Source of the DNA: Glaciihabitans sp.
Lineage (GTDB): Bacteria > Actinomycetota > Actinomycetes > Actinomycetales > Microbacteriaceae
Assembly (NCBI GenBank): GCA_025463465.1
Contig: JAODAO010000193.1
Span: 1 to 56,199, forward strand
Reading direction: 5' to 3'
DNA: 56,199 nt
The position numbers were made by a program, and so were the translations under genes. This document shows, piece after piece, positions 3,367 to 40,401 of the stretch (within the stretch, counting starts at the first letter, position 1; every line of letters starts with the position of its first letter). The notes under the pieces were generated by a model. That model was not told the DNA's origin and ran no database searches. It saw only the letters and a program-made list of their open reading frames with translations.

Positions 3367-6300
3367 TCAGCCGCTGCTGGGATCCGGGCCGGGCACGATG
3401 GGGATCGGTTCCGTGATGGGGTCTTTGTCGGCCCCCAGCATCGTGACGATGCGCATCGCCACGGCATCGGGGTCGCTGAAGAGCTCGAAGGCATGCACCC
3501 TCAGGTAGTGCCAGCCGAGGCGGCGCAGAAGTTCCGGGCGCAGGCGGAGCGACTCCCGCAGGGTCGAACGGTGCAGCACAGCGTCGGTCTCGATGGTGAC
3601 GCAGGTTCCGAGGTGCGCTGCGACGAGGCCGAGCTTTCCGCGGTGACCGAGGGCAACCTTGAGGCCGCGGCGCTCGAGTCGGCGGGCCAGGTCCACCAGC
3701 ATCGGGTCGCTGTCGTCCGGCACGGGAACCTGGGAGGAACGGGCGCCGACCTCCGCGAGGATCTCGGCGAGGGCGACGGCGCCGTAACGCATCCGGCCGT
3801 CCTCGATGTCCGACGGTTCGAAGCAGCTGACGATGACCATGGAGCGGCGGGCGCGGGTCATCGCGACGGCCAGCAGGCGATCGCCACCCGGCTCCCCGAG
3901 GGCGCCGAAGTTCGACAGCACCCGACCGTGCGGGGTGCGTCCGAACCCGATCGAGAAGATCACCCGGTCGCGGCTCTGCGCGACGGCGTGCTCGATGGTT
4001 GAGACGGTGAACGGTTCTGCGCGGTCGCCGATGATGAACTCGGTGAGCTTTGCGTTGCCGGTGACCGCGGTCAGCACGGCCTGCTCGACGCGGACGGCGT
4101 GGCGCTCGCTGGCGGTGATCACCATCAGCGACTCGTGGGGACGGCGTTGCGCGTGCTCGAGCACCAGGTCGACAACACGGCTGACCTCGGCGTCCGGGCT
4201 CTCGACAGCACCGGAGTGCGGGTCGGGCATGCCGTGGCCGTCGACGACGTAGTCGAGCGCGAGGCTGCCGTGGCCGAGGAAGCTTCCCGCCCAGGGCAGG
4301 GAGTCGATGCGGCCGCCGTAGAAGCGGCGGTTGACGAGCTCGGCGAGGTCTTCGCCGCCGGCCCGGTAACTGCGGGTGAGTGAGAGGGTCGGCAGTACCT
4401 GCGACAACTGGGCCAGCGCTGAGCGCTCGTGCAGTTCGTCCGGGCCTTCAAGTGCGCCCTCGGCCGGGTCGTCGCCCTGGGCGCCGTCCGCGCTATCCCT
4501 GGCGGCACCGGTCTCGTCGATGGTGATCGTGGACTTCGACTGCCCGCCGGCCGGGCCGGTGGAGAAGGTGAGGGATGCCCGGGGGGATGCCGACTGGGCC
4601 TGGTACAGCTCCGGGTCGGTGATCGCCACGGTGAATGGTGCCGGGGTCTGCGTGACGGGGTCACCGAAGGCGACGACCTGGCGGGCGCGGCGGATGGCTC
4701 CGACATTCTCGGCGAGGGTGGTCGCCCCGGCATCCACCAGGATCACGGTGTCGAACGGCAGGCTGTCGGCGATCTCGTGCACCTCGTACGGGGAGGACAA
4801 CCAGACGGGCGCAACGGTGCGGGAGAGGTGCGGTGCGGTGGCCTGCAGGTCACCGGCGACAATCTTCTCCTGCATCAGCAGCTTTTTGAGCGCCGTGGCC
4901 TCGTCGGGCCAGTCGACGAGTCCAATCTTCCAGTTCTCAGCGACCTGCCATGCCAACAGCTGCGCGCTGCCGGCGGCGTGGGCGTCGTCGACGAGGCGGA
5001 AGTCGGCTTCGAGGCGGTCGAGCACGGGGGTGTTCGCACCGAGCAGTGCGCGGTCGGCGGCGAGCAGGGACTCCAGGGCGGACTGCCACCAGGCCAGCTC
5101 CAGCTCCGCCTCGACCTGGGCCTCCGGCACGTGCCGCGAGGCGAGGTCCGCCGTCAGCGGGCCAAGCTCAAGGTCGCGCAGCGTCGCCATCAGGGCCATC
5201 CGGTCCTGCAGGTTGTTCAGCACGTCGGACTCGGCGGCCAGCGCCGTGATCCGTTCACGCAGCGCGGGGATGCTGAGATACGCCAGCTGGGCGTCACGGG
5301 TGTACGCGCCGAGGGGTTCGTCGAGGCTCGCCAGGTCCTGCGCGACGTCCTGGTAGGCAGCCTGCACGTCGGCGATGCCAACAGGCACCACCGGGGGGAC
5401 ACCTTCCGCGGCGAAACGCTGCCAGAGCACACGCTGCTGCTGGATGCGCACAAGGGCCTCGTGCAGGTCGTGCACGTGGGCGCCGGGGCGCACGTACTCG
5501 CGGGCCAGCTTCTTGAGGCGGCGGCGGTTGGCTCCGGACATGTCCGGGGCTTCCTTCCGCGACGCTGTCGCCACAATCAGTTCGCTCAGCGAGCGGTCGA
5601 ACACCACCGGCTGGAACTTGTCGAGGGTGTCGCGCAGGTCGACGAGCAGGCGCAGGTAGATGCCGAGTTCGTTGATCGAGCTGAACGCGCGAAGGTGGGT
5701 GTTGTGGATCAGGTCACCCGCACGTTCGAGCAGGCGCGGCAGCGACTCGGTGTCGAGGCGGCGGGCCACGTCGTGGGCCCGCGCCGCGGCCTGGCCGGTG
5801 GTGAACTGGGCGCCGTACCAGGGCGAATCGTCCGGGCCGTAACGGAACTCGCCGAGGCGGGCCGCGCTGACCATCGTCTCCGCGGTGCGGTGGCGGTCGG
5901 TGGCGAGGGTCTCGACGGTGGAGCGGGCGAGCCGGGCGGTGGTCGACGGCGGCGACGGCAACAGGGCGAGGCGGCTCAGTTCGGTGACGCAGTCGAGGAC
6001 GCTGATCCCGAGGATCGGGTCGGGTTTGGCGAGGGCGCCGCGGTAGTCGAGCAGAACCTTGCGAAGGCGGACGAGGGCCTCGTCGACCTCGGCGATCTGC
6101 GGCTGGACGGCCTTCTCGCTGCGGGAGATCGACCGCACCACGTCACGGCGGAGGGTGCGGGTAGAGACGGCGAGGCCCGCGAGGCCAACGTCGCCGAAGC
6201 GCTGGGCGATGCCGAGCAGGCTCGCTCGGCGCGCGCTGACGACCAGCACACGCTTGTTCTGCCCGACCAGGCTGCCAATGACGTTCACCACGGTCTGGGT

Positions 6301-7263
6301 GCCGCCGGTGCCCGGCAGGGTTTTCACCACAACGGAGTTACCCGCTGCGATCTGCGCCACCACGTTCTCCTGCTCGGCGTCCGCGTCGAGCAGCAGGGTG
6401 TCGGTCTGCGGCGGGCGCTCGTCCGAACTGAGCTGCTCCACCGGCGTGTACGCCTCGTCGAGGCTCCACCGGGCGGCCGAGTTTCCCCCGAGCGCGTCGA
6501 GCACGGTGTGCCGAAGGTCGACCGAGTCGTCGGCCAGGGCCCGGGCGACGTCGATGAACGACGAGACCACAAGCCGGGGCTGCACGCTGAACCGCTCCAG
6601 GTGGTCGGTCAGGCCGCGCAGGCGGTCGATGACCTGGTTGGGTTTGAAGGTGCCGTCCTCGTCGGCCAGCGCAGCGAAGGCCGCAGCGTCGAGGTCGAGG
6701 TCGAACTGTTCGTGCAGGGCACGCTGCAGCGCGGGGTTCAAAAAGGCGTTGCCCCGCAGCTTGACCTCGAAGTCGCGGCCGTGGCGACGGATGGCAAGGG
6801 GGCGCAGCAAAAGCGGCGCACGGTAGCTGACGTGGTCGTTGCGCCACTCCACCATCCCAATGCCGAGGTGGATGGCGTCGATGCCTCGCGCGGTGGCCAG
6901 CTCGAGGCCCTTCGCGGCGATGGCGCCGGCGGCGAGGCGGGCGGCACGCAGCGCGACCTCGTCGCGGATGAGGTTAGACAGCAGGGTCGTTTTGCCGGTG
7001 ATGAACTGCGCGAGGCCGCCGGGGTGGGTCGCGCTCAGTTCGATGCGGGTGCGCGGTGAGTCCACAAAATGCAGAAGGGGGGAGACACCGCCGACGGCAG
7101 AGAGCTCTGCACGCCAGTGTGCCCAGGTCGGTTCAGCCACGTTTCCCGCCTCAAATGTCGGGTCGCCCAGGGTCAGCGCATGGGGCACCGGGGAGCGACG
7201 GTCGGTGCGAGCGCGTTCGTCGGTCACGAACGTCTCTTCGTCAGTTTTCTCAGCACGCCACAC
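3367..7263 (-). CDS. DUF4011 superfamily I helicase/nuclease-like protein with degenerate ATPase motifs
   Basis: A 1298-residue protein with the layout of DUF4011-type SF1 helicases: an N-terminal DUF4011-like region (about 50-250), an AAA_11/12-type helicase core, and a C-terminal Vsr/DUF559-like nuclease fold (about 1190-1290). Key residues are lost. The expected GPPGTGKS/TQT Walker A reads LPGTGGTQT (residues 316-324), with Gly at the invariant Lys position; the expected DEAS Walker B reads VILVDAGATT. Motif VI is kept as AMTRAR. In the nuclease domain the usual LDLAV acidic strand reads LGLVA, although IETD is present. It may be catalytically dead and structural, or use an unusual mechanism. 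The GTG at 7263 has a ribosome site very close; a GTG at 7227 is an alternative start. The gene at 7314 is divergent. Confidence 0.85.
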   Translation of the reverse strand: MWRAEKTDEETFVTDERARTDRRSPVPHALTLGDPTFEAGNVAEPTWAHWRAELSAVGGVSPLLHFVDSPRTRIELSATHPGGLAQFITGKTTLLSNLIRDEVALRAARLAAGAIAAKGLELATARGIDAIHLGIGMVEWRNDHVSYRAPLLLRPLAIRRHGRDFEVKLRGNAFLNPALQRALHEQFDLDLDAAAFAALADEDGTFKPNQVIDRLRGLTDHLERFSVQPRLVVSSFIDVARALADDSVDLRHTVLDALGGNSAARWSLDEAYTPVEQLSSDERPPQTDTLLLDADAEQENVVAQIAAGNSVVVKTLPGTGGTQTVVNVIGSLVGQNKRVLVVSARRASLLGIAQRFGDVGLAGLAVSTRTLRRDVVRSISRSEKAVQPQIAEVDEALVRLRKVLLDYRGALAKPDPILGISVLDCVTELSRLALLPSPPSTTARLARSTVETLATDRHRTAETMVSAARLGEFRYGPDDSPWYGAQFTTGQAAARAHDVARRLDTESLPRLLERAGDLIHNTHLRAFSSINELGIYLRLLVDLRDTLDKFQPVVFDRSLSELIVATASRKEAPDMSGANRRRLKKLAREYVRPGAHVHDLHEALVRIQQQRVLWQRFAAEGVPPVVPVGIADVQAAYQDVAQDLASLDEPLGAYTRDAQLAYLSIPALRERITALAAESDVLNNLQDRMALMATLRDLELGPLTADLASRHVPEAQVEAELELAWWQSALESLLAADRALLGANTPVLDRLEADFRLVDDAHAAGSAQLLAWQVAENWKIGLVDWPDEATALKKLLMQEKIVAGDLQATAPHLSRTVAPVWLSSPYEVHEIADSLPFDTVILVDAGATTLAENVGAIRRARQVVAFGDPVTQTPAPFTVAITDPELYQAQSASPRASLTFSTGPAGGQSKSTITIDETGAARDSADGAQGDDPAEGALEGPDELHERSALAQLSQVLPTLSLTRSYRAGGEDLAELVNRRFYGGRIDSLPWAGSFLGHGSLALDYVVDGHGMPDPHSGAVESPDAEVSRVVDLVLEHAQRRPHESLMVITASERHAVRVEQAVLTAVTGNAKLTEFIIGDRAEPFTVSTIEHAVAQSRDRVIFSIGFGRTPHGRVLSNFGALGEPGGDRLLAVAMTRARRSMVIVSCFEPSDIEDGRMRYGAVALAEILAEVGARSSQVPVPDDSDPMLVDLARRLERRGLKVALGHRGKLGLVAAHLGTCVTIETDAVLHRSTLRESLRLRPELLRRLGWHYLRVHAFELFSDPDAVAMRIVTMLGADKDPITEPIPIVPGPDPSSG

Positions 7264-11130: not shown

Positions 11131-13998
11131 TCAGCGTCGCCCGGAGCGGGAGACCCAGTACGCCACAACAGACGCGGACACCCGCAGGGTTGCCGCCACC
11201 TCGCTGATGGTGCGCCCGTTGTCGACAACGGCGGCTACTGCAAGCTCCTCCACGGTGGGAAATTTAGCCGGCGTTGTTGCTCCGGAAGTCGCGGGTTGGG
11301 CGGCGGAGGTGCGGCCCGTCCCATCCCCATTCCGGGGTCCGGCGGCGGCCGCGCGTCCCGCATTTTTGGGGGCCGGGCGCGGCGTCCCGGTGGACGACGG
11401 GGAGCGGGGTGGCGCGGCGGGGCTGCGCTGGCCGGGACCGGAGTGTGAACCGGGAGGGGAGGTGGGTGTTGGGCGGGCGCCGGCGGCGGGGACACCCGAG
11501 GCGGTCCAGCGACCGGGGTGGCGCATGGGCACCTCACGGGACACGAAGCGGGGTGGGGCATCGAGGTCGGCTTCGGCCTTTTCGACGGGTCCCGCTGGTT
11601 CCGCCGGTTCGGACACGGTGGATTCAGCGGACGCGGATGCCTCGCGGATCACCACCGGGGTGACTGGGGGAACAGCGCGCCCTCGCCCGAACCGGCTGGG
11701 CGTGCGTGACTCCGGCGGTGCTGCCTTCGGCAGCGGCGTGATGTCCTCGGCGGAGACGGAGTTGTCACCGGGTCGCGCTCGCGCGACAAAGCGGCGGGTG
11801 GGTACCTCGGCTTCGTCGTCAGCGTCGCCATCCTTGTCAGCGCCGTCAGCGCCGTGTACCCCGTCTGCCGTCGGCGAGCTCGGGCTCGGGCCCGCCGGTG
11901 CGTTGTCGTTACGGTCCGGGATCTCCGCCAGGGCGAGTCGGCGGCGGATGTAGAGCACCGCCGCGAGGGCGGGGATGAGCAGCAGTGCGAGCAGCCAGGT
12001 AAGGGGGTGGTTGTCAAGCCAGAGGAGCGCGGTGGGGCGGGTTGACCAGTCCGCCTCGACGGTGCCGCTGATCTTCACGGCCGTGCCGGCATCCACCTGG
12101 GTGATCGCGGACGGCCCAACGCCGCTGATGGTGTTCTTTTTCAGCGTCGCCGAAATACCGGGGCCCGCCAGCGAGATTCCGGTGCCGATGTCCACGGCGA
12201 CCGTGTTGCCGGTGAGGGTGGCGTCGGAGCCGGAGATCACGATGCCGGTGTCGTTTCCGGCGATGACGTTGTTCGACACCGTGACGTCGCTGGCCCCGTC
12301 GGTGATGCTGAGACCGCTTGACCGCTCGGAGGTGAGGGTCGAGTCGTTGATGGTGATGGCGCTGGAGGTTCCGCTGACCAGCATGGCGGCACTGCGCTGG
12401 TTGACGATCGAGTCGGTGACGTCAACATTCGAAGCGGAGAGCACCACAACGCCTCCGGAGGTGTTTTTCGTCACAAAGGCGCGACTGACGTGCAGTCCCC
12501 CGGCGTTGACAACGCTGAAGCCGTCGGCGGAGGGACCGTCGGCCCGGGCGGCACCGTCGAAGCGGAGGCCGAAGCCGCCGTTGTTGGAGAGGGTGACGTC
12601 GTCGATGGTCACGTCGGCGCTGCCGGTGTCGACGTTGATTCCGCTTCGACCCGCGCCGTCGACGAGGGCCTCCGTGATGGTCAGGTTCCGGCTACCGTCG
12701 GCGACCGCGATGCCCTGCTCTGCCGAGTCGCGCACCGTTATACCGGACATGGCGACATTGCTGGTGGCGGACAGGTAGGCGCCGATGTGCAGGCCGGTCA
12801 TCGTGGTGTTCATCACGCTGCCGGTGCCCGGGCCGTCGGATGATCCGGTGATGGCGAAGCCGCCGGTGCGTCCGCTCCAGAAGCCGAGGTTGCTGAGGGA
12901 GACGTTGTCGGTGGCGATGGTGCCGCCGTTGGCGCGGATGTAGGCGCGGCCGTCGTCGAGTTCGGTATCGACGGTGTTGGTGTCGGGGTCCCAGCCGACG
13001 ATGCCGAGGGGTTCCCCGACGGCGCCGGCGAGTACCAGGTTGCCGCCGGTCGATACGATGCTGGCGAAACCGCCGGCCGCGCTGTAGAGGCGGAGGGTCT
13101 GCCCGGGGGCCGTGAGGTTCAACGTGGCGCCGCGCTGCAGCACAACGCGTTGCTGCAGCAGCAGGGTTGATTCATCGACGCGCACCACCGCGCCGAGTGT
13201 GATTAAGGAGTCGAGGGTGTATTCGGTTCCGACGCCGAGGCCCGATCTGGCCAGCACGGTGGCGGACAGGCCAGGGGCGAGACCGGCGACGTCGTCCTGC
13301 GCGATGGTTGAGAGGATGGCGTCCTCGTTGGCGACGAGCTCGCCCTGGGCGATGTAGGAGCCGCGGGAGCCCTGCACCGACGCGGCTTTGTCCGTGAATT
13401 GTCCCGGGCCTGCCGCCGCCGTGGCTTCCGCATTCTCCGACGGTGCGGTGGTCTCGGACGGTGCGGTGGTGTCAAGCGGGGCGGTGGTGGATGTCGCGGT
13501 GCCGGTGGGGGTGGATGCGGGGGCGTTCGTGCCGGTGCGCGCGCTGGTTGTGGTTCCTGCCGCGCGGGGTGCGTCGCTGGCGTCCCCGGATGCGGAATCG
13601 CCGATCACCCCGGTGCTCGCGAGGACGATCGCGGTGATGCCGGCGAGAGCGACGGCGACCATCGCGATCCGCCCGAGCAGGGGAACCGTCGAGCGCGACC
13701 GTCGACGTCGATCACCGGTGACGGTTGGAGCGGCGGGAGCCTCCGCGGTGTTCACGGGCTCGGCGGTGGTGCCGATGTCTTCGGCGAATCTCTCGTCGCT
13801 CTCGGCGACAGTCCCCGTGTCGGGCTTGTCGGGCTTGTTGAGCTTGTTGGGCTTGTCGGGCGGGACGGTAGCGTCCGGTTCCGGCGGTGCGGGCGGGTTC
13901 GTCGGGGCTGCGCTGTCCCTGGCCGCGAGGTGCGCCCAGAGGTCGTTGTCGCCGTTGCTATCAGCGGGAACGCCGCCCCGCGGTGTGCGCACCATCAC
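11131..13998 (-). CDS. Membrane-spanning right-handed beta-helix protein with C-terminal HTH
   Basis: A 955-residue protein with five regions. Residues 1-108 are a disordered tail with a PDKPNKLNKPDKP repeat. Transmembrane helix 1 is at about 109-131. A Thr/Ser/Pro/Ala linker runs to about 200. A long NosD/pectate-lyase-like parallel beta-helix (about 210-650) is rich in repeats such as GLSITDGASDVTVSNNVIAG. Transmembrane helix 2 (about 664-683) ends in YIRRR and is followed by a proline-rich cytoplasmic tail. The last 40 residues (VEELAVAAVVDNGRTISEV then LRVSASVVAYW) look like a helix-turn-helix. The predicted topology is N-in, beta-helix outside, C-in. It could bind or modify an extracellular polysaccharide and signal inward. 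The start is a GTG at 13998 with ATG at 13995 as alternative. Confidence 0.8.
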   Translation of the reverse strand: MMVRTPRGGVPADSNGDNDLWAHLAARDSAAPTNPPAPPEPDATVPPDKPNKLNKPDKPDTGTVAESDERFAEDIGTTAEPVNTAEAPAAPTVTGDRRRRSRSTVPLLGRIAMVAVALAGITAIVLASTGVIGDSASGDASDAPRAAGTTTSARTGTNAPASTPTGTATSTTAPLDTTAPSETTAPSENAEATAAAGPGQFTDKAASVQGSRGSYIAQGELVANEDAILSTIAQDDVAGLAPGLSATVLARSGLGVGTEYTLDSLITLGAVVRVDESTLLLQQRVVLQRGATLNLTAPGQTLRLYSAAGGFASIVSTGGNLVLAGAVGEPLGIVGWDPDTNTVDTELDDGRAYIRANGGTIATDNVSLSNLGFWSGRTGGFAITGSSDGPGTGSVMNTTMTGLHIGAYLSATSNVAMSGITVRDSAEQGIAVADGSRNLTITEALVDGAGRSGINVDTGSADVTIDDVTLSNNGGFGLRFDGAARADGPSADGFSVVNAGGLHVSRAFVTKNTSGGVVVLSASNVDVTDSIVNQRSAAMLVSGTSSAITINDSTLTSERSSGLSITDGASDVTVSNNVIAGNDTGIVISGSDATLTGNTVAVDIGTGISLAGPGISATLKKNTISGVGPSAITQVDAGTAVKISGTVEADWSTRPTALLWLDNHPLTWLLALLLIPALAAVLYIRRRLALAEIPDRNDNAPAGPSPSSPTADGVHGADGADKDGDADDEAEVPTRRFVARARPGDNSVSAEDITPLPKAAPPESRTPSRFGRGRAVPPVTPVVIREASASAESTVSEPAEPAGPVEKAEADLDAPPRFVSREVPMRHPGRWTASGVPAAGARPTPTSPPGSHSGPGQRSPAAPPRSPSSTGTPRPAPKNAGRAAAAGPRNGDGTGRTSAAQPATSGATTPAKFPTVEELAVAAVVDNGRTISEVAATLRVSASVVAYWVSRSGRR
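13821..13856. repeat. 9-bp tandem repeat inside the beta-helix gene
   Basis: Four copies of a 9-bp unit close to CGGGCTTGT encode the Pro-Asp/Asn-Lys repeats of the cytoplasmic N-terminus. Copy-number change would stay in frame. Confidence 0.8.
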
Positions 13999-14297
13999 GC
14001 GACCACAGTGATGAGGGTGTGCTGGGCATCACCGAACGCGACAGCTGAATTCACTTGCGCCGACCCCCCTGGCCCACCATTTTCCACGGAGTGTTGCCAC
14101 GCACCGCCGAGAGTCCTTGCGATACTGAACTGGCTGTGCGGTGCCTGCGCGTTCGCCGGGTCGAACCGAAGCGCGCCTCATTTTACACAGAGTCAAGGAT
14201 TCTTCTACTTAATCAGCGGAACTTGGGTATTTTAGGACGTGGATCCGCAGGCAGCCCGAGCTCGCGTACCTCGAGGCGCAGGGGAAGGCGATTCACG
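13999..14297. other. Divergent intergenic region between two beta-helix genes
   Basis: About 300 bp without a convincing gene separate the beta-helix membrane protein (minus) and the beta-helix lipoprotein (plus). The stretch around 14175-14235 is AT-rich for this genome and includes TATTTT at 14228-14233, a possible -10 box for the lipoprotein gene, but no good -35 box is seen. No riboswitch-like structure was recognised. Confidence 0.4.
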
Positions 14298-15374
14298 GTG
14301 GCAACGACCAGGCTCCCCCTGACACGTCTCGCGCTGGTGCTGGCCGTCGTGTGCGCACTGCTGGCGGGCTGCACCGCCGGCACATCGGGCGAGCAGCCAT
14401 CCCCCTCGTCGTCCCAACTGCCCGCCGAACCCGAATTCTCCGGCGAGCTCGGCGCCACGGCAGAATCCTGCGACGGCGCTCCTTCCGTATCAACAGCTGA
14501 TGAGTTGGCCGCAGCCGTCGCCGCCGCCCAGCCCGGCGGGATCATCGCGCTCGCCGACGGAATCTACCCCGGCTCTTTGGTGCTGCAGGCCGTCGGAGCC
14601 GCGGAGGCTCCGATCACCCTCTGCGGCTCCCGCGATGCGGTCCTCGACGGCGGCCCAACGGACAACGGCTACGCGCTGCACCTGCAGGGGGCGTCGTATT
14701 GGAATCTGGTCGGGTTCACCGTCACGGGCGGCAAAAAGACCGTCATGCTCGATGCCGCGAGCAACAACACCCTGTCCGGTCTTGCCATTAGCGGTAGTGG
14801 CGACGAGGGACTGCACCTGCGATCCGCCAGCAGCGGCAACCTGGTGCAGGGTAACGAGATCAGCCAGACCGGGCTGGTCAATGCCGAATACGGCGAGGGA
14901 ATCTACGTCGGCACGGCGCAGTCGAACTGGTGCAGATACACGGGTTGCGAGCCTGACCGCAGCGACGGCAACCGCATCATCGGCAACACGATCTTCGGCA
15001 CCAGCTCCGAAAACATCGACGTTAAAGAGGGCACAACCGGCGGCGAGATCAGCGGCAATTCCCTCGACGGCGGTGCAACGAAGCAGGCCGATTCACTGGT
15101 AGACGTGAAGGGCAGCGGCTGGACCGTCACCGGCAACACCGGCAATAACGCCCCGCAGGACGGCATTCAGGTGCACGTGATTGCGGAGGCTCCCGGCAGC
15201 GACAACACCTTCGGCGACAATTCAATGGTCGTGTCCGGCGTTGGTGTCGCTATCAACATCGTCGGCGATGCCAGGCACGCCGGCAACATCGTGCTCTGCG
15301 ACAACACCGTGGTCAAGGCGAGCCAGATCGGTTCGGCCGCCAACCTCAGCAACCTGGCCTGCAGCACCTCCTGA
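14298..15374 (+). CDS. Secreted beta-helix lipoprotein
   Basis: A 358-residue product starting with a basic/hydrophobic signal and the lipobox LLAGC, so it is probably lipid-anchored on the outer face of the membrane. The body is a right-handed parallel beta-helix with NosD/Chondroitinase-B-like coils (DGIYPGSLVLQAVG, NTLSGLAISGSGDEGLHLRS, GNRIIGNTIFG). This fold is typical of polysaccharide lyases, epimerases and binding proteins. The GTG at 14298 is preferred because GGGGAAGG lies nine bases upstream and the signal peptide then begins at once; the open frame to 14055 is rejected. It is divergent from one beta-helix gene and converges on the Clp gene. No catalytic residues can be named with confidence. 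Confidence 0.85.
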   Translation: MATTRLPLTRLALVLAVVCALLAGCTAGTSGEQPSPSSSQLPAEPEFSGELGATAESCDGAPSVSTADELAAAVAAAQPGGIIALADGIYPGSLVLQAVGAAEAPITLCGSRDAVLDGGPTDNGYALHLQGASYWNLVGFTVTGGKKTVMLDAASNNTLSGLAISGSGDEGLHLRSASSGNLVQGNEISQTGLVNAEYGEGIYVGTAQSNWCRYTGCEPDRSDGNRIIGNTIFGTSSENIDVKEGTTGGEISGNSLDGGATKQADSLVDVKGSGWTVTGNTGNNAPQDGIQVHVIAEAPGSDNTFGDNSMVVSGVGVAINIVGDARHAGNIVLCDNTVVKASQIGSAANLSNLACSTS

Positions 15375-15467
15375 CCGCCGAACACCCATCGCGGCGCGCC
15401 CCAGGAACAGCAGAGGGTTGGGCAGCAGCGCTGCCCATCCCCGGGCCCTTCGGCCTCTTACTTCCGC

Positions 15468-15508
15468 GGTTGTGTTCTGCGGTTATGCCGTGTGGTTATG
15501 CCATTCGG

Positions 15509-15519
<11 letters not shown>
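15468..15519. repeat. 13-bp tandem repeat at the 3' end of the Clp gene
   Basis: There are three clear 13-bp units starting GGTTATGCC (at 15481, 15494 and 15507) and a weaker copy GGTTGTGTTCTGC at 15468. The last copy contains the Clp stop codon (15509-15511). Confidence 0.75.
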
Positions 15520-18055
<2,536 letters not shown>

Positions 18056-18073
18056 GTGGACCTCCTGGGAAAA

Positions 18074-18094
18074 CTTGAGTGCCTTCGACTCAAG
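18074..18094. promoter_or_regulatory. HAIR operator (HspR-binding inverted repeat)
   Basis: The sequence CTTGAGT-N7-ACTCAAG matches the HspR-associated inverted repeat exactly. It lies between the Clp start codon (18055) and the next upstream gene, and so should repress Clp expression until heat shock titrates HspR away. Confidence 0.93.
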
Positions 18095-18132
18095 TTAACG
18101 CTGGGGGATCCGTTTCATTCCCAAATCGGTAA

Positions 18133-19812
18133 TCAACTTCTTTCGCTGTCGTCCACCCCGGCCCGGCGGCGGCGCTCGCGCAGTTTTCGGTTCACTCGCA
18201 TCCGCCTTGCGCTGCTGCGCTCGGAACGGGGGACGTGACCGCTGCCAAAACGCGCGTCCCGGATCGTCCCTCCGGGAACCTGCCGGCGGGGCAGCGCCAG
18301 CCTGGCGATCCCCAGCAGGATGGGCACCCCCAGGATCGCCGCCCACAACACCAGCAGCGGGTTCCAGCGGAACAGTCGCCCGACCGCCGTGAGCACGTCA
18401 TCGCTGCGAACGGCGATGCCCCCGATCGCCAAGGGGGTCGATGCGCCGCCCAGGGTGTTGTCCGTCAGCTGTGCCGCGCCCGATTCCCCGATGGCGACGC
18501 TCGCCCATCCCCCGCTCACCGTGTTCTTCGTAATCTGCACGTCGCCAGCTCCGCTCAGCACGTCCACCCCCGCCAATGCGCTGTCGGAGATCGTGTTGCC
18601 GCTCACCAGCGCGGAGGCGAGGTTTTTCACCCGGATGCCCACGTGGTTTCGCTCAAGCCGGTTGCCGGAGATCACCGTGCCGGTGCCGCCCTCCACCTCA
18701 ATGCCGCTTCCGTCGTTGTTGTAGGCGTGGTTGTCGAGCAGCTGGTTGTCGTTGGAATCGAGACGCCTGGCCTTGGCATCCGATGAGTCAGAGGAGCGGC
18801 CGTCGTCAATCATAAATCCGTGGCCGCGGTTGTTGTAGGCGATGTTGTCGCGCATGATGTTGCGGTCGCAGCCGCGGGAGAAGATAAAACCGTGCCTGCC
18901 GTTACCCCTGGCGATGTTGTCGGCCACCAAAAAATCGTTACTGAGGTCGTGTGGATCGAAGCCGTAACCGAGGTTGTCCTCGAACGTGTTGCGCAGCCAC
19001 TGCATACCCTGTGCCTCAAACGTGTATGCACCAAACCAGTTGTTATGCATCACGGTGTCGGTCACGTTGCCGCGGGAGGGGTTCAGCCTCGGCACCTGCT
19101 GCGTGCCCTGCACCTGGTCGGTGCCGCGCCAGGCGAGTCCGGAGCTGGCTCCGGTGCCGAACCCGAGATAACCGATATCGGCGTTGGCGATGTCCATCCG
19201 GCCGCCGAGGTTGAGGATGAACGCCCGCCCGTCGGGGGTTTCCTCGTCAGCGGCTCCCTTGGCCGGATCCCAGGACGAGAGGTGCACGGGGGTCTGCGCG
19301 GTGCCGCGGATGTCGACGTCGCCGCCGCGGGAGATGATGGTCGCGAAAGCGCCCGGTTCGCTCAGCAGGTACACGTTGGGAGTGGTGGCCGAATGGATGT
19401 TGAGATGCGCACCGGCCGGGATTTCGATGCTGGCGCGCAACAGCACCGCATCCCCCACCGTCTCGAACGCCTGCGGAAGCAACTCCCGCACCTCGGCAAA
19501 GTCGTACGGCTTCTCCCGCGGCGGCAGCAGGAGGGTGGGAAGCGGCTCGGGAAAGGTGGCGTCGACGAATTGTGGCGCCGCGATAGTCGCGGCGATCGTC
19601 GTGAACTTGCGACTGCGCTGCAACTCCCGGTTGAGCATCGCAGCGTCGACGTCGACCAGCGGCAGCGGCACGGGGTTGTATGCGGGCGGGCCAGGAGGCG
19701 CGGCCGGCCGGCTGTAGGCGATCGCCGCGCAGGCGAGGAGTCCGGGCAGGATGGCAACAAGCAGAACGGCGATCAACAACCGTCGTCGGCTGAGTTCAGC
19801 CCTGACTGGCAT
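18133..19812 (-). CDS. Membrane-tethered right-handed beta-helix protein
   Basis: A 559-residue protein with an N-terminal membrane segment (about 12-33, ending near a Cys that is only a weak lipobox), a parallel beta-helix with short coils (about 130-480) and a C-terminal helix (NPLLVLWAAILGVPILLG, about 487-507) followed by a very basic tail. The coils repeat patterns such as NNWFGAYTFEAQ, DNIARGNGRHGF and GNRLERNHVGIRV, like Mannuronan-epimerase and NosD-type proteins. The architecture (membrane helix, beta-helix, membrane helix) matches the 11131-13998 protein. Its ATG lies inside the end of the TIG-glycosyltransferase gene (17-bp overlap), so the two are translationally coupled and probably work on the same polysaccharide. 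The catalytic activity is not provable from sequence. Confidence 0.85.
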   Translation of the reverse strand: MPVRAELSRRRLLIAVLLVAILPGLLACAAIAYSRPAAPPGPPAYNPVPLPLVDVDAAMLNRELQRSRKFTTIAATIAAPQFVDATFPEPLPTLLLPPREKPYDFAEVRELLPQAFETVGDAVLLRASIEIPAGAHLNIHSATTPNVYLLSEPGAFATIISRGGDVDIRGTAQTPVHLSSWDPAKGAADEETPDGRAFILNLGGRMDIANADIGYLGFGTGASSGLAWRGTDQVQGTQQVPRLNPSRGNVTDTVMHNNWFGAYTFEAQGMQWLRNTFEDNLGYGFDPHDLSNDFLVADNIARGNGRHGFIFSRGCDRNIMRDNIAYNNRGHGFMIDDGRSSDSSDAKARRLDSNDNQLLDNHAYNNDGSGIEVEGGTGTVISGNRLERNHVGIRVKNLASALVSGNTISDSALAGVDVLSGAGDVQITKNTVSGGWASVAIGESGAAQLTDNTLGGASTPLAIGGIAVRSDDVLTAVGRLFRWNPLLVLWAAILGVPILLGIARLALPRRQVPGGTIRDARFGSGHVPRSERSSARRMRVNRKLRERRRRAGVDDSERS

Positions 19813-21967
19813 GTGCCACCACCTCGATCTCTTGCTGGCCCTGCACGCGCTGGCCCTCCTGACGGGTGAGCCAGCCCTGTTTGTTCATCGTCAGCGCCGC
19901 CCAGAACTTAATGGGGAGCGCGATCGCCGCGATCACCACGGCGATCAGCGGAGCCATCACAATGTCTTTCGGGTTCTCCGACAGGTGCGACAGGCCACGC
20001 AGTGCCCGTCCCACTACGGCCCAGCCGAGCACGATTGACACCGCGATCCAGCCGCCCTCACGAATCCAGCCGAGGCCGTACCAGATCGCCGCCCCCATCG
20101 ACACGGGGGTGAGCAGGATCTGCAGCACCGTCACCTGGGTGATCAGGGGCTGATGCCACAACCAGCCCTGCGATAGGGCGGTGAGGTAGCAGCGGTAGGA
20201 GTTGCGGCTCCAGCGGATGCGCTGGCGGACAAATGCTGTCAGCTCTGCAGGGAACATGGAATCGGCCTCGGCGGTGTCCTGGTGCACTGTGCGGAAACCG
20301 GAGGCAAGCACCAGCCAGGTCAGCCGGCCGTCGTCGCCGGCCACACACTCCCGGCCGAGGAATATCTCCTTCTCCAGCGCCGGCATCAGCGGAAGGATGA
20401 CCTCGCGCCGGTAAGCCGCGGTCCGCCCGGACAGGCAGGCCACTCCACCGCGGCGGGACATCGCCGGCACGTAGTCGAGGTAGCGGGTGTTCAGCATCCA
20501 GTACGCCACCCGACGCCACACATTGGTGCGCGGAAGGTAAACGTGCTGGCGGGAGCCCACACCGCCCACCTTCGGGTCGACGAACGGCATCTGCATCGAG
20601 GCGAGCAAGCCGGGACGCCACTGGGTGTCGGAGTCGGCGAACACCACAATCTCGCCGCGGGCCTCGCGCACCCCGGCGCCGAGCGCCCCACGCTTGCCGG
20701 TGTGCCGCCATTCCAGCACCTTCACCCGATCCAGGTCGAGGCCACGGATGTGGGAGAGCAACGCGTCGTCGGTGTCGTCGACCACGAGGATCACCTCGGT
20801 CGGATCCTCCGCCAACCAGGTGTACAAACACCTCTCCAGCACTTTCGCGTCTTCCCGGTAGACGGGAACAACCACGGAGGTGGTGGTGCGGAAATCGTTG
20901 ACCACCGGGCGGTAGCGGTGCCGCGACAGGAAACGGCGAATGAACCAGATCGACCACGACAGGACGCCGATTAAGCCGAGGGGGATGTAGCTGTGCCGAA
21001 CCGGTTTCTCCTGGAACGCCGCCGCGGGGGCGACATAGCTGTAGTCCATCCAGTCCTGGATCTGGGTTGTGGTGCCAGCGGACGTCGTGACGCTCAGGGT
21101 GACATCGCCGACGGCGGTACGAGCGGGGGTGGTGACGCGCACCTCGGAGTCGGACAGCACCCGCACATTGGTGGCGGCCACCCGACCGAAGGTTGCAGCC
21201 GAGACATCCGCCAGATGGGCTCCACGCAGCGTCACCTCCGTACCACCCTCAAGGGTTCCCGTGTGGGGAGACAGCGCGGTGACGGAGGGGGTTTCGGCGT
21301 AGGTGAAGGCGGTGGCGGGGTCGACCGCTGATGTACCACCCGGCGTGCTGAGGGTGATGGCGATTTCTTCACTGCCCCTGTGGGTGGGCGAGATGACCCG
21401 CACCGTGCTGTATGAGACCGTGACAACGCTGGCCGGGGTCTGCCCGAAAAGCACCTCGGTTGTGCCGTTGAGGTGCGTGCCCGTGATGGTAACCAGGTTG
21501 CCGCCCGCGTCCGAACTCGAGGCAGGGTCAACGGCGGTGATAGCCGGCGGGGTGACAAAGCGGTAGTGGACCGGGGAGTCGCTGGCGCTCCGCTGGGACG
21601 GGCTGAACACCCGCACGTTGACAGAACCCTGGGTCGCCCTTGCCGGAGTGGTGGCATAAAGCTCCGTGTCGGAGACGACAAGGACGTTGGTGCCCTCAAG
21701 CCCCCCGAACAATACCCGCACCGCTCCAATGAACCCGCTGCCGGTCACTTTGACGCGGGCACCACCCTGGGTACTTCCAGCGGAGGGGGTCACCGTCGAC
21801 AGTGCGGGATACGGCACAACGGGTGGCGCCCCCGCTGACGGAGCGTTCAGCACGCTAAGAACCGGGACAGCCCCAGCGAAGGTGGGCGAGCCGAGAACAA
21901 CCGCGCCGGCGGCCAAGAGGACAACACCGACCAGTGCGACGGAACGTGCGGTTTGCCGCAGAGTCAT
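19796..21967 (-). CDS. Processive GT2 polysaccharide synthase with three N-terminal IPT/TIG domains
   Basis: A 723-residue membrane protein. It has a signal-like hydrophobic helix (about 8-32), three IPT/TIG beta-sandwich domains (about 53-137, 139-223 and 226-311) predicted outside, a transmembrane helix (about 327-346), a cytosolic GT2 domain (about 360-600), and several C-terminal helices ending in NKQGWLTR. The GT2 domain has the VVDD motif (395-398), ADSD (444-447), GDD (544-546) and QRIRW (582-586, the QxxRW motif) of processive synthases such as hyaluronan and cellulose synthases. It should polymerise a nucleotide sugar while extruding the chain. TIG domains on such an enzyme are unusual. 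The frame is open up to a GTG at 22126; the ATG at 21967 is chosen because the signal helix follows directly. Confidence 0.88.
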   Translation of the reverse strand: MTLRQTARSVALVGVVLLAAGAVVLGSPTFAGAVPVLSVLNAPSAGAPPVVPYPALSTVTPSAGSTQGGARVKVTGSGFIGAVRVLFGGLEGTNVLVVSDTELYATTPARATQGSVNVRVFSPSQRSASDSPVHYRFVTPPAITAVDPASSSDAGGNLVTITGTHLNGTTEVLFGQTPASVVTVSYSTVRVISPTHRGSEEIAITLSTPGGTSAVDPATAFTYAETPSVTALSPHTGTLEGGTEVTLRGAHLADVSAATFGRVAATNVRVLSDSEVRVTTPARTAVGDVTLSVTTSAGTTTQIQDWMDYSYVAPAAAFQEKPVRHSYIPLGLIGVLSWSIWFIRRFLSRHRYRPVVNDFRTTTSVVVPVYREDAKVLERCLYTWLAEDPTEVILVVDDTDDALLSHIRGLDLDRVKVLEWRHTGKRGALGAGVREARGEIVVFADSDTQWRPGLLASMQMPFVDPKVGGVGSRQHVYLPRTNVWRRVAYWMLNTRYLDYVPAMSRRGGVACLSGRTAAYRREVILPLMPALEKEIFLGRECVAGDDGRLTWLVLASGFRTVHQDTAEADSMFPAELTAFVRQRIRWSRNSYRCYLTALSQGWLWHQPLITQVTVLQILLTPVSMGAAIWYGLGWIREGGWIAVSIVLGWAVVGRALRGLSHLSENPKDIVMAPLIAVVIAAIALPIKFWAALTMNKQGWLTRQEGQRVQGQQEIEVVAHASQG

Positions 21968-22422
21968 TCCGAGTGACGGGTGAGCGGACGTTCGCCGAGG
22001 CGATGACGGGGTCTCCGCAATGCCCCTGCACTGGGAGGCCTTCCTGGCAGAACTGTTTTCGCGGTGCACTGGATCGCTTTCATCGTCGAGAGCATCGGTG
22101 ACTGGGCGACCACCGATGTTGAGCACGTCGAGGCAGCAACGCTGGTGCCGGCGGCAGGTAGGCGCTGAGATAGGAGATCTTCGACCGGGGGCCGACGCTC
22201 AGCGCGCCGCTGCACTAAAGACGCACAAAAGATTTCCCACGTTAAAGAACGGCGACCTGTGGGGTGCGTCTTGGCTCCCGGCCACGGTTGGGACGAAGGG
22301 AGTTAAGTAATCCTCGCAGTGCAATATCGGCTGCGGCACCCCTTTATCGACACGCGTTGCGGTGTTAGAAGCTCATTCACAAGGACGTGCACAGAAACGA
22401 GATTATCTCGATAAAACCGTCG
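21968..22422. other. Intergenic region upstream of the TIG-synthase
   Basis: About 455 bp with no convincing gene; the first 160 bp could be an N-terminal extension of the synthase if the GTG at 22126 is used. An 8-bp inverted repeat (AGACGCAC at 22219-22226 and GTGCGTCT at 22264-22271) surrounds an AT-richer stretch and may be a leader structure or regulator site. A weak hairpin lies just after the permease stop (around 22400). Confidence 0.4.
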
Positions 22423-38056: not shown

Positions 38057-39394
38057 TTAGTCCCAGCCCCCCAGGTAGGCGGCGAGGGGCGGTTCGGCGG
38101 GCAGCTCCTGCACCCACGGTGCGGTTACCGTGTCGGTGCGGAAGAGGTCGTCGCGGTTCCAGCGCCGTGCCCGTGCCGCCGCGCGGCTCGATTCCACCCT
38201 GACCTGGGTGCTGTCTGGGGTGAACACGATGGCGCCGAGGCCATTGTTTCCCACCCGGTCGACGGCCGAGCGCAGGGTCTCGCCCGGGCCCTGACTCCCG
38301 GGCTCGTCGCGCACGCGAACGGCCGTGTTCACCCGCACCAGCACCCGCGCCGCGCCGCGGGCGTTCTGCGCGACGGCGGTCCCGGCGGGCACGATGCGCG
38401 CATCGGCGGCGAACGCGGAGACGACCTCCTCAGGCACCACCACGGTCGCCTGCGGCAGCACACGCAGGATCGAATCAACGCTGAGGAATGCCGCGGCGAC
38501 ACTGTGGGCGGATTCCAGGAGAACCACCACGTCGGCCACCCTCCCGCGAACGGCGAGGCCACTGGAGCCGGGCACCGCTATCCGGTCGGCCAGAGCCAGG
38601 GTCTCTCGGTTTTTCGCCGCCGCCCTTGCGCTGTTCCCACTGTCGCGGCCGGCCCAGTCCGGCCCGTTGTGCCAGGCGACCGCGCTGGGAACGTGGGCGA
38701 AGACCGCGCCGGCCAGCCATGCCCGGTTGGCCCAGTCCCAGTCCTCCCCGCCGTATTCAGCGAAGGTCTCGTCGAACCCACCGAGCTCGTCGAAGAAAGA
38801 TCGACTGCAGGCCAGCACCGCGCCGATGAGGTACCGGTAGGAGCGGCTGTCGGCCTCCAGCAGGTTGCCGCTGCGCTCGTAGGCTTCGTCCAGCCAGGCC
38901 GGGGCAGGAAGCGCCAGCGCTTCGGCATCCACGATGCCGGGCTTGTCGCTTCGGGAGAAGTCGGCGTGCCGGCGGCGCCCGACGGTCACCGCGTCCGCGG
39001 CGAGCGCTGGCAGGCGCGTCAAGTTGCGCACGTAATCCGGTTCCGGCGAGGTGTCGGCGTCGAGAAAACAGAGCAACTCCCCGACGGAGTGGGCGACCCC
39101 GAGATTGCGGGCCGCCGAGAGCCGGAAGCCGAGATCCTCCTGCTGCACCAGCAGGACACCGGCCGGAACCGTTGGGGTGACGGCGGACCCGTCATCCACC
39201 ACCACCACCTGCAGGCGGTCCCGTGGATAGTCCTGCTGCAGCAACGCGAGTAGCGTGCGGTCGAGTTCGAGCTGCTGGTTGTAGTGCACCACAATCACCG
39301 ACACCGTGGGTGCCTCGCTCGGCCACTGCCCGTCAAGCAGGTCCCAGCGGTTGCCGGGAATGCCGGCGCCGTTCAGCCCTGCACCGTTCACCAT
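38057..39394 (-). CDS. GT2 family glycosyltransferase
   Basis: A 445-residue GT-A enzyme. The N-terminal domain (TVSVIVVHYNQQLELDRTL) is followed by VVVDDGS, FLDADTSPEPDYV (the DXD metal site) and GYGGEDWDWANRAW-like text reading EYGGEDWDWANRAW, the galactosyltransferase-type C-terminal block. The C-terminal 150 residues have no clear family. The ATG at 39394 overlaps the stop of the next upstream gene, so translation is coupled. It is the third gene in the minus-strand operon after WcbI and a GT4-like gene. The sugar and acceptor are unknown. Confidence 0.9.
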   Translation of the reverse strand: MVNGAGLNGAGIPGNRWDLLDGQWPSEAPTVSVIVVHYNQQLELDRTLLALLQQDYPRDRLQVVVVDDGSAVTPTVPAGVLLVQQEDLGFRLSAARNLGVAHSVGELLCFLDADTSPEPDYVRNLTRLPALAADAVTVGRRRHADFSRSDKPGIVDAEALALPAPAWLDEAYERSGNLLEADSRSYRYLIGAVLACSRSFFDELGGFDETFAEYGGEDWDWANRAWLAGAVFAHVPSAVAWHNGPDWAGRDSGNSARAAAKNRETLALADRIAVPGSSGLAVRGRVADVVVLLESAHSVAAAFLSVDSILRVLPQATVVVPEEVVSAFAADARIVPAGTAVAQNARGAARVLVRVNTAVRVRDEPGSQGPGETLRSAVDRVGNNGLGAIVFTPDSTQVRVESSRAAARARRWNRDDLFRTDTVTAPWVQELPAEPPLAAYLGGWD

Positions 39395-40401
39395 GCGAGG
39401 GTGCCCCACCAGCGCAGGTACCTTTCTGCGACCTCGGGGGTGTTGGGGCCGGTGCTGGCATTGGCGTCGAGCCACGTCGAGGCGGGGTCCGCCAGCGCGG
39501 TCGCGATCGATTCGGCGAGGGTGGATGTGTCATACAGGGTGACGGTGCCGGGCCGCAGCGTCGACATCTCGCGGGAGTAGCGGGTGTTGGGTACCAGCGG
39601 GCGGCGGCCGGCGGAGATCCAGGTCGCCAGCGAACCGGACGCTGAGACGTGCTGGTGGGCGGCGAGGGGAACCCCGGCGCGGCGGCAGCGTTCCACCAGT
39701 TCTGCGTCATCGAGGAACCCCGTTGCGCTGAAGAGCACGCCCCGCGATTCGGCATAGTTGTGCAGGTCGACGAGGTCGCCCTCGTGGCCGGGCGACGCCC
39801 TGCCGAGGGCAACAACGGCGGGCCGCTGCCCGGTGATCACCGCCACGGCGTCGAGGGCGTCGCTGTGCCCCTTGCCGGGATAAACGAATCCGACCAGCGC
39901 GACGGCGCCGTCGAGTTGCCCGGCCGGCCCGTGCGTGTCTGACGAGTTGTGCCCATCGTGGATGTCCACGGGAAGGGGGATGACTTCGACCGTCACGGTT
40001 TCGCTGACGTATTCGGCGAGCAACTGGGCCTCGTGTTCGCTGTTGCAGGCCACCCCGGTGGACGCCGCCACCACCCGGGCGTAACAGTCGATGCGCCTGG
40101 CGAGATTTCTAGCGCCGTCGGAGGCCTGCGGCAGGTCGTGCAGGGTGACGGACACGGAGGTGACCCCGGCGAGGCGGGTGAACGTGTCGGCGGCGTCCTC
40201 CGGGCTGCTCCCCCACATCCGATCGGTGAAGTGGACGTGCACCCGGGCGGGAGGATCAGCCAGGCATTCTGCGAGGCTCAGCTGGACGGTCACGCCGGTC
40301 GCCCGGTCAACCGCGTCGGCTACCTGCCTGGCGTAGCGGGCGACACCGTGCTGGGGGTCGCCGAGTTGCACCTGCGCCGGCGGGGCGCTCGCGGCCGTCA
40401 C
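39388..40401 (-). CDS. GT4-like glycosyltransferase
   Basis: A 337-residue putative GT-B enzyme. The N-terminal part contains HGVARYARQVADAV, recalling GT4 nucleotide-sugar glycosyltransferases, and the C-terminal half shows GFVYPGKGHSDAL and AAHQHVSASGSLATWISAG, in place of the usual E-x7-E motif. The divergent motif means donor specificity cannot be guessed. It overlaps the WcbI gene by four bases upstream and the GT2 gene by seven bases downstream, so it is part of one tight operon. Confidence 0.8.
   Translation of the reverse strand: MTAASAPPAQVQLGDPQHGVARYARQVADAVDRATGVTVQLSLAECLADPPARVHVHFTDRMWGSSPEDAADTFTRLAGVTSVSVTLHDLPQASDGARNLARRIDCYARVVAASTGVACNSEHEAQLLAEYVSETVTVEVIPLPVDIHDGHNSSDTHGPAGQLDGAVALVGFVYPGKGHSDALDAVAVITGQRPAVVALGRASPGHEGDLVDLHNYAESRGVLFSATGFLDDAELVERCRRAGVPLAAHQHVSASGSLATWISAGRRPLVPNTRYSREMSTLRPGTVTLYDTSTLAESIATALADPASTWLDANASTGPNTPEVAERYLRWWGTLAW

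What the first reader, a model, noticed from the sequence alone, without database searches (positions are those of the whole stretch)
11131..22126. Candidate polysaccharide system: TIG-armed GT2 synthase with three beta-helix partners
Seen: within 11 kb there are one processive GT2 synthase with QxxRW and DXD motifs and three extracellular TIG domains, and three beta-helix proteins (two with membrane helices at both ends, one lipoprotein); one beta-helix gene overlaps the synthase gene. Known: beta-helix proteins often cleave, epimerise or bind polysaccharides, and GT2 synthases with QxxRW extrude them (compare Alg8/AlgG in alginate). Inference: this could be a monoderm synthesis-secretion-modification machine not matching a named EPS locus. 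I cannot tell which step each beta-helix performs.
Basis: partly seen in the sequence, partly recalled or inferred. Interest (0 to 1): 0.7.

Follow-up and report, generated by a model that had tools for sequence, protein, structure and literature searches.

The report
Actinobacterial polyuronate synthase with alginate-type epimerase
This stretch of an actinobacterial genome looks like a machine that makes an acidic sugar chain and then edits it outside the cell with an enzyme related to those that shape alginate; it is conserved in several actinobacterial families but, as far as our searches showed, has not been described.

Summary
The four genes are real, but not one operon; a ClpC-like gene (15509-18055) lies among them. 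The three beta-helices differ. P0002 (18133-19812), with a membrane helix at each end, is an AlgG-like uronan C5-epimerase: phmmer 1.6e-19 to AlgG, model-to-AlgG Z 39, catalytic YGFDPHD and Arg kept. P0003 (14055-15374) matches the PL31 alginate lyase PsAly (6.9e-42). P0004 (11131-13998) is a paralogue without the catalytic His and Arg. P0001 is a NodC/hyaluronan-synthase-like GT2 with three TIG domains.

Of 394 genomes of the class, 30 hold a close relative of this synthase; all 30 hold PL31, 28 within 6 kb (four weaker synthase matches lack PL31). The synthase tree divides by epimerase motif; the TIG fusion is one clade of 8. Three linked dehydrogenases tested resemble UDP-glucose dehydrogenase; a rhizobial AlgG operon, as control, gives GDP-mannose dehydrogenase. 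Best reading: a monoderm synthase-epimerase-lyase system for a glucuronate-based polymer, probably edited toward iduronate; the product is inferred. Nine searches of open-licence papers listed no description of it; one 2023 paper calls glucuronan genes unknown. New variant of a known kind.

The parts
19796..22126 (-). P0001: membrane GT2 processive synthase with signal/anchor, three TIG domains, GT2 core, C-terminal membrane helices
   Evidence: Pfam TIG 3.5e-35, Glyco_tranf_2_3 2.1e-30; NCBIfam best NodC 7.1e-32, under its cut-off; PDB best hyaluronan synthase 3.5e-17
21029..21817 (-). three TIG domains (about residues 104-366), predicted outside the membrane
   Evidence: TIG part at block pLDDT about 66-91 although the whole model is poor
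20201..20881 (-). GT2 catalytic core (residues 416-642) with DSD, GDD and QRIRW
   Evidence: key residues invariant in 20-sequence alignment A1
18133..19812 (-). P0002: AlgG-like C5-epimerase, beta-helix with a membrane helix at each end
   Evidence: phmmer 1.6e-19 to AlgG 4nk6; NF038177 7.3e-25 at 87.6 bits, cut-off 700; Foldseek 3.9e-14; VIA Z 39.1
18946..18957 (-). codons of the DPHD catalytic motif (residues 286-289); catalytic Arg equivalent is residue 313
   Evidence: aligned with AlgG DPHD and the Arg of ISR; D286, H288, D289 and R313 invariant in the 11-sequence alignment A2
19796..19812 (-). 17-nt overlap of synthase and epimerase genes
14055..15374 (+). P0003: lipoprotein PL31-type uronan lyase (true start probably downstream of the listed TTG)
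   Evidence: phmmer 6.9e-42 to 6kfn alginate lyase, residues 144-408; PsAly of Paenibacillus FPU-7 named PL31 in PMC8286568 (passages)
11131..13998 (-). P0004: membrane-anchored beta-helix paralogue lacking the catalytic His and Arg; HTH-like cytoplasmic tail
   Evidence: 26% to P0002, E 8.7e-21; 'neither' class; tail shared with L070 and L072
15509..18055 (-). ClpC-like AAA+ protein lying between the lyase and the epimerase; not judged part of the system
   Evidence: Pfam Clp_N, AAA_2, ClpB_D2-small

Best explanation
A synthase-dependent polyuronate system of monoderm bacteria. UDP-glucose dehydrogenase supplies UDP-glucuronate. The GT2 enzyme polymerises it and threads the chain out through its own membrane helices. 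The adjacent beta-helix enzyme P0002, tethered to the membrane at both ends, epimerises C5 of residues in the emerging chain (D-GlcA to L-IdoA if the chain is glucuronan). The surface lipoprotein P0003 cuts the chain to set its length or clear misplaced polymer. P0004 is a non-catalytic paralogue that may bind the polymer. The TIG domains form an extracellular extension of the synthase. Shown here: homology, catalytic residues, fold, conserved linkage, dehydrogenase type in tested loci. Inferred: polymer identity, direction of epimerisation, lyase role, P0004 role, TIG role.
For: P0002 to AlgG: phmmer 1.6e-19, Foldseek 3.9e-14 with AlgG in ranks 1-4, VIA Z 39 against 33 for AlgE; D-P-H-D and Arg aligned and invariant in A2; role of the DPHD His and of Arg per PMC4444821 (passages). 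P0003 to PsAly 6.9e-42; a GH5+PL31 enzyme is reported to have glucuronan lyase as well as alginate lyase activity (ClGP, in PMC13235733, passages). Co-occurrence: close synthase relatives in 30, PL31 in 38, both in 30 of 394 genomes, Fisher 5.5e-38 (relatedness not corrected); 28 of 30 linked within 6 kb. Synthase tree: 14 DPHx against 90 other needs 2 changes, shuffle mean 13.3, 0 of 500 as low; TIG needs 1 change. A hit to the UGD model lies within 8 kb in 65 of 90 'other' and 6 of 14 DPHD-clade loci. Three linked dehydrogenases have UGD or UGD-family PDB entries as best relatives, while the rhizobial AlgG operon gives GDP-mannose dehydrogenase 6.5e-129. The window's own genome has a UGD-type gene on C24 (L176), up to 78% identical to locus-linked ones.
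Against: No UGD lies in the window, and none within 8 kb in 7 of the 8 TIG loci (4 of the 8 have full flanks, and all 4 lack it); 25 of 90 'other' loci lack it too. NCBIfam does not separate UGD from GMD: the GMD-like control also has UDP-glucose dehydrogenase models as its best equivalogs, so the case rests on PDB rankings and the tree. Some linked dehydrogenases are atypical (L117 276 bits, Pseudonocardia loci 374-395 bits; L087 far from all references). P0002 is far under the curated AlgG cut-off (87.6 of 700 bits). PL31 enzymes are best known on alginate. A GT2 of NodC/HAS type could use GlcNAc as well. The TIG-synthase model was too poor to use (pLDDT 52). The own genome's second copy (L071) has no linked lyase over threshold. 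No biochemistry.
Confidence: 0.52

Rival explanations
1. True alginate: the synthase polymerises GDP-mannuronate from an unlinked GDP-mannose dehydrogenase, and P0002 makes guluronate.
For: DPHD/AlgG-type epimerase and PL31 lyase related to an alginate lyase. Published view that brown-algal alginate steps came from an actinobacterium (PMC8307928, passages). The assembly is 86.6% complete, so a GMD could be missing.
Against: Three locus-linked dehydrogenases tested, two of them in DPHD-type loci, are UGD-like. The rhizobial AlgG-operon control shows GMD, a mannose-1-phosphate guanylyltransferase (TIGR01479) and a GT2 that scores only 51-58 bits against the actinobacterial GT2 model, whose accepted members score 589-700 apart from L084/L085 at about 500. 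In the window's genome three of the four over-cut-off PF03721 proteins lie near locus UGDs in the tree, and the fourth is far from both references.
Confidence: 0.13
2. A GlcA-containing heteropolymer (hyaluronan- or heparosan-like) made by one GT2, with P0002 turning GlcA into IdoA, as in animal glycosaminoglycans.
For: Best-characterised relatives of the GT2 are NodC and hyaluronan synthases; UGD linkage.
Against: PL31 and the accessory PL14 are known from homouronans (recall; both listed as alginate-lyase families in PMC8286568, passages). None of the ten neighbourhood representatives scanned was an amino-sugar gene, but clusters C4, C6 and C8 were not scanned.
Confidence: 0.2
3. P0002 is a lyase or a polymer-binding scaffold rather than an epimerase.
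For: Epimerases and lyases have related catalytic sites, and AlgE7 does both (PMC4444821, passages); beta-helices are a common fold.
Against: The seven best fold matches are all epimerases (Z 39 to 32.7), above the other beta-helices (29.7 and below, among them an epimerase/lyase at 29.4). The window already has a PL31 lyase.
Confidence: 0.12

Closest known systems
Bacterial alginate system (alg; Pseudomonas, Azotobacter; rhizobial plasmid operons L177 and L178)
   Same: GT2 synthase and DPHD beta-helix C5-epimerase acting after polymerisation; a lyase in the classical alg locus and in most loci here
   Different: UGD-type instead of GDP-mannose dehydrogenase in the loci tested, NodC/HAS-like GT2, PL31/PL14 lyases, epimerase with two membrane helices instead of free in a periplasm, TIG domains on the synthase in one clade, no ManC/AlgA among the neighbour representatives scanned
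AlgG mannuronan C5-epimerase (NF038177; PDB 4nk6)
   Same: right-handed beta-helix, Tyr-Gly-x-Asp-Pro-His-Asp motif, Arg for the carboxylate
   Different: about 22% identity over 350 aligned residues; far below the equivalog cut-off; membrane helix at each end; probable GlcA substrate (inferred)
PL31 lyase PsAly (PDB 6kfn)
   Same: homologous along 265 residues with the conserved blocks kept
   Different: surface lipoprotein beside biosynthetic genes
Hyaluronan synthase / NodC GT2
   Same: processive GT2 with DxD, GDD, QxxRW and membrane helices
   Different: paired with an epimerase gene; TIG fusion; specificity untested
Glucuronan of Sinorhizobium/Peteryoungia
   Same: predicted polymer backbone (beta-1,4-GlcA)
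   Different: its biosynthetic genes were stated unknown in 2023 (PMC10180729, passages); no epimerised form was described in the passages seen

Membership tests
AlgG mannuronan C5-epimerase (NCBIfam NF038177) | score over curated cut-off (700 bits) | tested here: not met
   87.6 bits
AlgG mannuronan C5-epimerase (NCBIfam NF038177) | DPHD motif with catalytic His, and Arg neutralising the carboxylate | tested here: met
   roles from PMC4444821 passages
AlgG mannuronan C5-epimerase (NCBIfam NF038177) | AlgG-type long beta-helix fold | tested here: met
   Foldseek 3.9e-14, VIA Z 39.1, rmsd 2.5 over 353 residues; model pLDDT 79.6
AlgG mannuronan C5-epimerase (NCBIfam NF038177) | activity on polymannuronate | not testable with these tools
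   needs enzyme assay
Alginate biosynthesis system | GDP-mannose dehydrogenase in the locus | tested here: not met
   none in the window ORFs scanned; three dehydrogenases linked in relatives are UGD-type; positive control finds GMD
Alginate biosynthesis system | Alg8-type GT2 with Alg44 PilZ partner | tested here: inconclusive
   the rhizobial operons' GT2s score 51-58 bits against the actinobacterial GT2 model; no PilZ in the 33 window ORFs scanned; no Alg8 reference was held
Alginate biosynthesis system | polymer of ManA/GulA | not testable with these tools
   no chemistry
PL31 lyases | homology to PsAly over the catalytic beta-helix | tested here: met
   E 6.9e-42, residues 144-408
PL31 lyases | catalytic residues of PsAly | not tested
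   conserved blocks seen but individual residues not checked against the enzyme paper
Processive GT2 synthases | DxD, GDD, QxxRW and C-terminal membrane helices | tested here: met
NodC (TIGR04242) | score over curated cut-off (550) | tested here: not met
   110.8 bits
Glucuronan synthesis system | UDP-GlcA supply linked to the synthase | tested here: inconclusive
   UGD-model hit within 8 kb in 54 of 67 'other' loci with full flanks, but in only 2 of 6 DPHD-clade loci with full flanks (6 of 14 in all) and not in the window
Glucuronan synthesis system | polyglucuronate product | not testable with these tools
   no chemistry

The most novel reading that the evidence does not exclude
The clade encodes a glucuronan C5-epimerase of the AlgG fold, a kind not described in the sources searched: a membrane-tethered enzyme working beside its synthase to make a mixed GlcA/IdoA homopolymer, an alginate analogue built on glucuronate. 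The much larger sister class, whose beta-helix keeps G-x-x-x-His-Arg plus the second Arg (99 of 138 sequences keep His and the second Arg), would be a second, undescribed kind of uronan-modifying enzyme. Together they would be the actinobacterial source lineage proposed for the brown-algal alginate-editing enzymes.
Probability: 0.3. Interest if true: 0.82.

Novelty: new variant of a known kind. Interest (0 to 1): 0.62.

Why it matters
Three open points meet here. (1) The genes for bacterial glucuronan were stated unknown in 2023 (PMC10180729, passages); these loci are concrete candidates in culturable strains. (2) PMC8307928 reports the view that the alginate-specific steps of brown algae came from an ancestral actinobacterium (passages). 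PMC11468063 finds the closest bacterial C5-epimerases in Actinobacteria (about 30% identity), calls the actinobacterial origin of the dehydrogenase not strongly supported, and says that the bacteria, mainly Streptomyces, with homologues of another alginate lyase (PL41) are not known to have an alginate pathway (passages). A synthase-epimerase-lyase locus in actinobacteria makes the question testable: what polymer did the donor enzymes edit? (3) Alginate is edited in a periplasm; an epimerase with two membrane anchors beside a TIG-bearing synthase would be a monoderm solution, and an IdoA-rich homopolymer would be a new material. The DPHD clade includes strains named lapidis and deserti, which hints at a desiccation role, but that is only suggestive.

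Tried and rejected
Considered and rejected: a degradation (uptake) locus, because a processive synthase is the anchor and a UGD is often linked; one MFS-transporter cluster does recur, in 4 of the 39 sources (C12). NosD-like copper maturation (Pfam NosD matches), because NosD fold matches are weaker (Z 27.8 against 39); nitrous-oxide genes were not searched for. The ClpC gene as a partner, because it stayed unclustered among the 15 other loci; it recurs beside L084 and L085 only.

Led nowhere: the TIG-synthase model (pLDDT 52) was too poor for a fold search; representatives of clusters C9 and C10 had no Pfam hit; P0004 found no PDB sequence relative; its HTH-like tail gave no Pfam hit in the whole-protein scan; the two plasmid stretches fetched carried no annotation and were read with our own ORF calls. 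PL14 was not found in the own genome, but the control genomes were silent too, so absence is not shown. NCBIfam could not tell UGD from GMD.

Weak points: ORF calls and score thresholds are ours; the HMMs were built from the window and loci L052-L089 and then applied to these and to L090-L169. The 80 named loci are the best 80 of 245, so they over-represent the window's own clade. The co-occurrence test treats related genomes as independent. Its 30 synthase genomes are those at 1e-200 or better; I dropped four between 1e-90 and 1e-102 (G243, G332, G461, G480), none of which has a PL31 match. The motif survey rests on an alignment at about 26% identity; one of the 138 rows (an L125 piece) is a gap there.
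Full report
What is there. The four proteins exist at the stated places. P0001 has three TIG domains and a GT2 domain with DSD, GDD and QRIRW. P0002 and P0004 are beta-helices with a hydrophobic segment on each side. P0003 is a lipoprotein-like beta-helix on the opposite strand.

What each beta-helix is. P0002: the best PDB sequence relatives are AlgG mannuronan C5-epimerases (1.6e-19), then AlgE epimerases. The AlgG motif Y-G-x-D-P-H-D and the Arg of S-R align and are invariant in the 11-sequence alignment A2. A review assigns proton abstraction to the DPHD histidine and charge neutralisation to an arginine (PMC4444821, passages). An AlphaFold2 model from A2 (pLDDT 79.6) finds AlgG first with Foldseek (3.9e-14) and with VIA-align 2 (Z 39.1, 353 residues, rmsd 2.5; AlgE about 33; next a phage tailspike 29.7). 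It misses the curated AlgG cut-off by far (87.6 of 700 bits), so it is AlgG-like, not filed as AlgG. P0003: the single strong PDB relative is the alginate lyase of Paenibacillus FPU-7 (6.9e-42), which a review places in PL31 (PMC8286568, passages); another paper mentions a GH5+PL31 enzyme with glucuronan lyase activity (PMC13235733, passages). P0004: a paralogue of P0002 (26%) without the His and the Arg.

Conservation. P0002 relatives are found in 33 of 394 genomes of the class (own included) at 1e-10, and in 9 of 149 nearer relatives, own included, at 1e-5; the two same-genus genomes have none at that level. On what appears to be the same draw of 394 genomes, the synthase model matches 34 at 1e-90, of which 30 at 1e-200 or better. 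I used those 30 and dropped G243, G332, G461 and G480, none of which has PL31. PL31 matches 38 at 1e-20. All 30 synthase genomes have PL31, against 8 of the other 364 (Fisher 5.5e-38, relatedness not corrected). In 28 of 30 a PL31 gene is within 6 kb of the synthase; the exceptions are G192 (PL31 on other contigs) and G396 (different contigs of a fragmented assembly).

A named search gave 245 relatives of the synthase, 80 kept, by title actinobacteria with one Chloroflexi MAG. Mapping the window and 118 loci shows GT2, beta-helix and PL31 together in most, often with a UDPG/GDP-Man-type dehydrogenase and sometimes PL14 (Pfam PF21294 on a representative). Within 8 kb of the synthase, PL31 lies in 81 of 90 loci of the larger class and 6 of 14 of the DPHD class; a UGD-model hit in 65 of 90 and 6 of 14. 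So the DPHD class is less regularly linked to either, in part because its contigs are short (6 of 14 have full flanks).

Two classes. Of 138 distinct beta-helices over threshold, 15 have D-x-H plus Arg (14 DPHD, 1 DPHT), 99 keep His and Arg, mostly in the form G-x-x-x-H-R, 14 keep His only (among them the DPHS proteins of L084 and L085), 5 Arg only, 5 neither (one of these is an alignment gap). On a synthase tree of 107 rows, 14 rows beside DPHx epimerases and 90 beside others need 2 changes (shuffle mean 13.3, 0 of 500 as low); 3 rows had no beta-helix call. The tree is a quick one with long branches (L052, L117 among them), so the exact root of the DPHD group is unsure; 12 of the 14 form a starred clade. 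The TIG fusion is one change: 8 rows in one starred clade (window, L071, L090-L094, L104). Synthase and epimerase types thus travel together, as expected if the enzymes share a polymer.

Which sugar. Dehydrogenases from L065, L096 and L117 have UDP-glucose dehydrogenases, or for L065 the mixed-name family entry 3gg2, as best PDB relatives, with GDP-mannose dehydrogenase much weaker (L096: 1.6e-98 against 4.2e-51). Positive control: a DPHD operon on a Rhizobium plasmid (found, read) has a dehydrogenase whose best PDB relative is GDP-mannose dehydrogenase (6.5e-129) and a mannose-1-phosphate guanylyltransferase (TIGR01479). So the PDB ranking can tell the two, and the actinobacterial loci tested come out on the UDP-glucuronate side (L117 is from a Chloroflexi MAG). 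NCBIfam cannot: UDP-glucose dehydrogenase models are the best equivalogs of the GMD-like control too. No UGD is in the window; the own genome has UGD-type genes elsewhere, one (C24) up to 78% identical to locus-linked ones. Not all linked dehydrogenases are typical: Pseudonocardia loci score 374-395 bits and include the locus row nearest the rhizobial ones, and that of L087 is far from every reference, so the rule may not hold for every locus.

The genome's second copy. Contig C103 (L071) carries another TIG-GT2/DPHD pair, 95% identical in the GT2 core and 62% in the epimerase. The genome is a 485-contig assembly with 6% contamination, but purQ beside that copy is single, which favours a true second copy. 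PL31 occurs three times (C398, C117, C51).

How it probably works. Inference from the parts: the synthase extrudes the chain; the epimerase gene overlaps the synthase gene and the enzyme has a membrane helix at each end, so editing happens at the exit; the lipoprotein lyase trims. P0004 has kept the fold but lost the two residues, so a binding or sensing role is likelier; its HTH-like tail is shared with two homologues of the same family, L070 and L072. In those relatives the P0004-type gene adjoins a TIG-less synthase and a divergent PL31 gene, so in the window the P0004/P0003 pair looks like a remnant of that older locus beside a TIG-type operon. TIG domains in several members follow a proline-rich stretch (10-31% Pro in the N-terminal part of the seven TIG synthases listed); a scaffold through the wall is a guess.

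Against print. Nine paper searches listed no paper that described this locus in its title or abstract start; I did not read every listed paper, and the library holds open-licence papers only. I opened nine papers, all as passages: PMC7112194 finds alginate operons largely in Pseudomonas; PMC10180729 says glucuronan genes are unknown; PMC8307928 and PMC11468063 discuss an actinobacterial origin of brown-algal alginate steps, the second doubting it for the dehydrogenase; PMC4432689 (2015) names one bacterial glucuronyl C5-epimerase as the only identified epimerase acting on bacterial polysaccharides after polymerisation besides AlgG and AlgE1-7; PMC4444821, PMC8286568 and PMC13235733 as above; PMC13118837 mentions beta-helix proteins in Streptomyces without this context.

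Verdict. The finding is real, better than chance, and most likely a new variant of the synthase-dependent polyuronate systems. Interest 0.62: the parts are of known families, but the combination, its spread, the UGD link and the bearing on glucuronan genes and on the origin of alginate editing are new to the sources searched.

Noticed in passing
L084:11512-17848 and L085 (G243, G480; family f36): A different cluster: DPHS beta-helix, a second GT2, an acyltransferase-SGNH protein, PL14 and a short dehydrogenase far from both UGD and GMD references; might be another uronan system with O-acylation.
   Followed up: partly
window 11131-11280 (C-terminal tail of P0004); L070, L072: An HTH-like tail of about 43 residues on a beta-helix membrane protein, predicted cytoplasmic, 53-56% identical in two relatives: possibly a polysaccharide sensor.
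   Followed up: partly
L177 and L178 (Rhizobium megaplasmids NZ_CP121642.1, NZ_CP149878.1): Alginate-type operons with a GMD-like dehydrogenase, GT2 and a long DPHD AlgG-like protein (about 1250 aa), plus a ManC-type guanylyltransferase in L177.
   Followed up: partly
window 38057-42812: A second polysaccharide-like region: GT2 (38057-39475, -) and a WcbI-domain protein (40398-42812, -).
   Followed up: no
window 49279-56181: Allophanate hydrolase-like, urea carboxylase-like and two DUF1989 proteins in a row, a urea-degradation set.
   Followed up: no
window 3367-7263: A 1298-aa protein with weak DUF4011, AAA_12 and MTES_1575 matches, possibly a nuclease-helicase; a relative lies near the synthase locus of L070.
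   Followed up: no
G000 C103 (L071:1829-5936): A second TIG-synthase/DPHD-epimerase pair beside purQ in the same assembly.
   Followed up: yes
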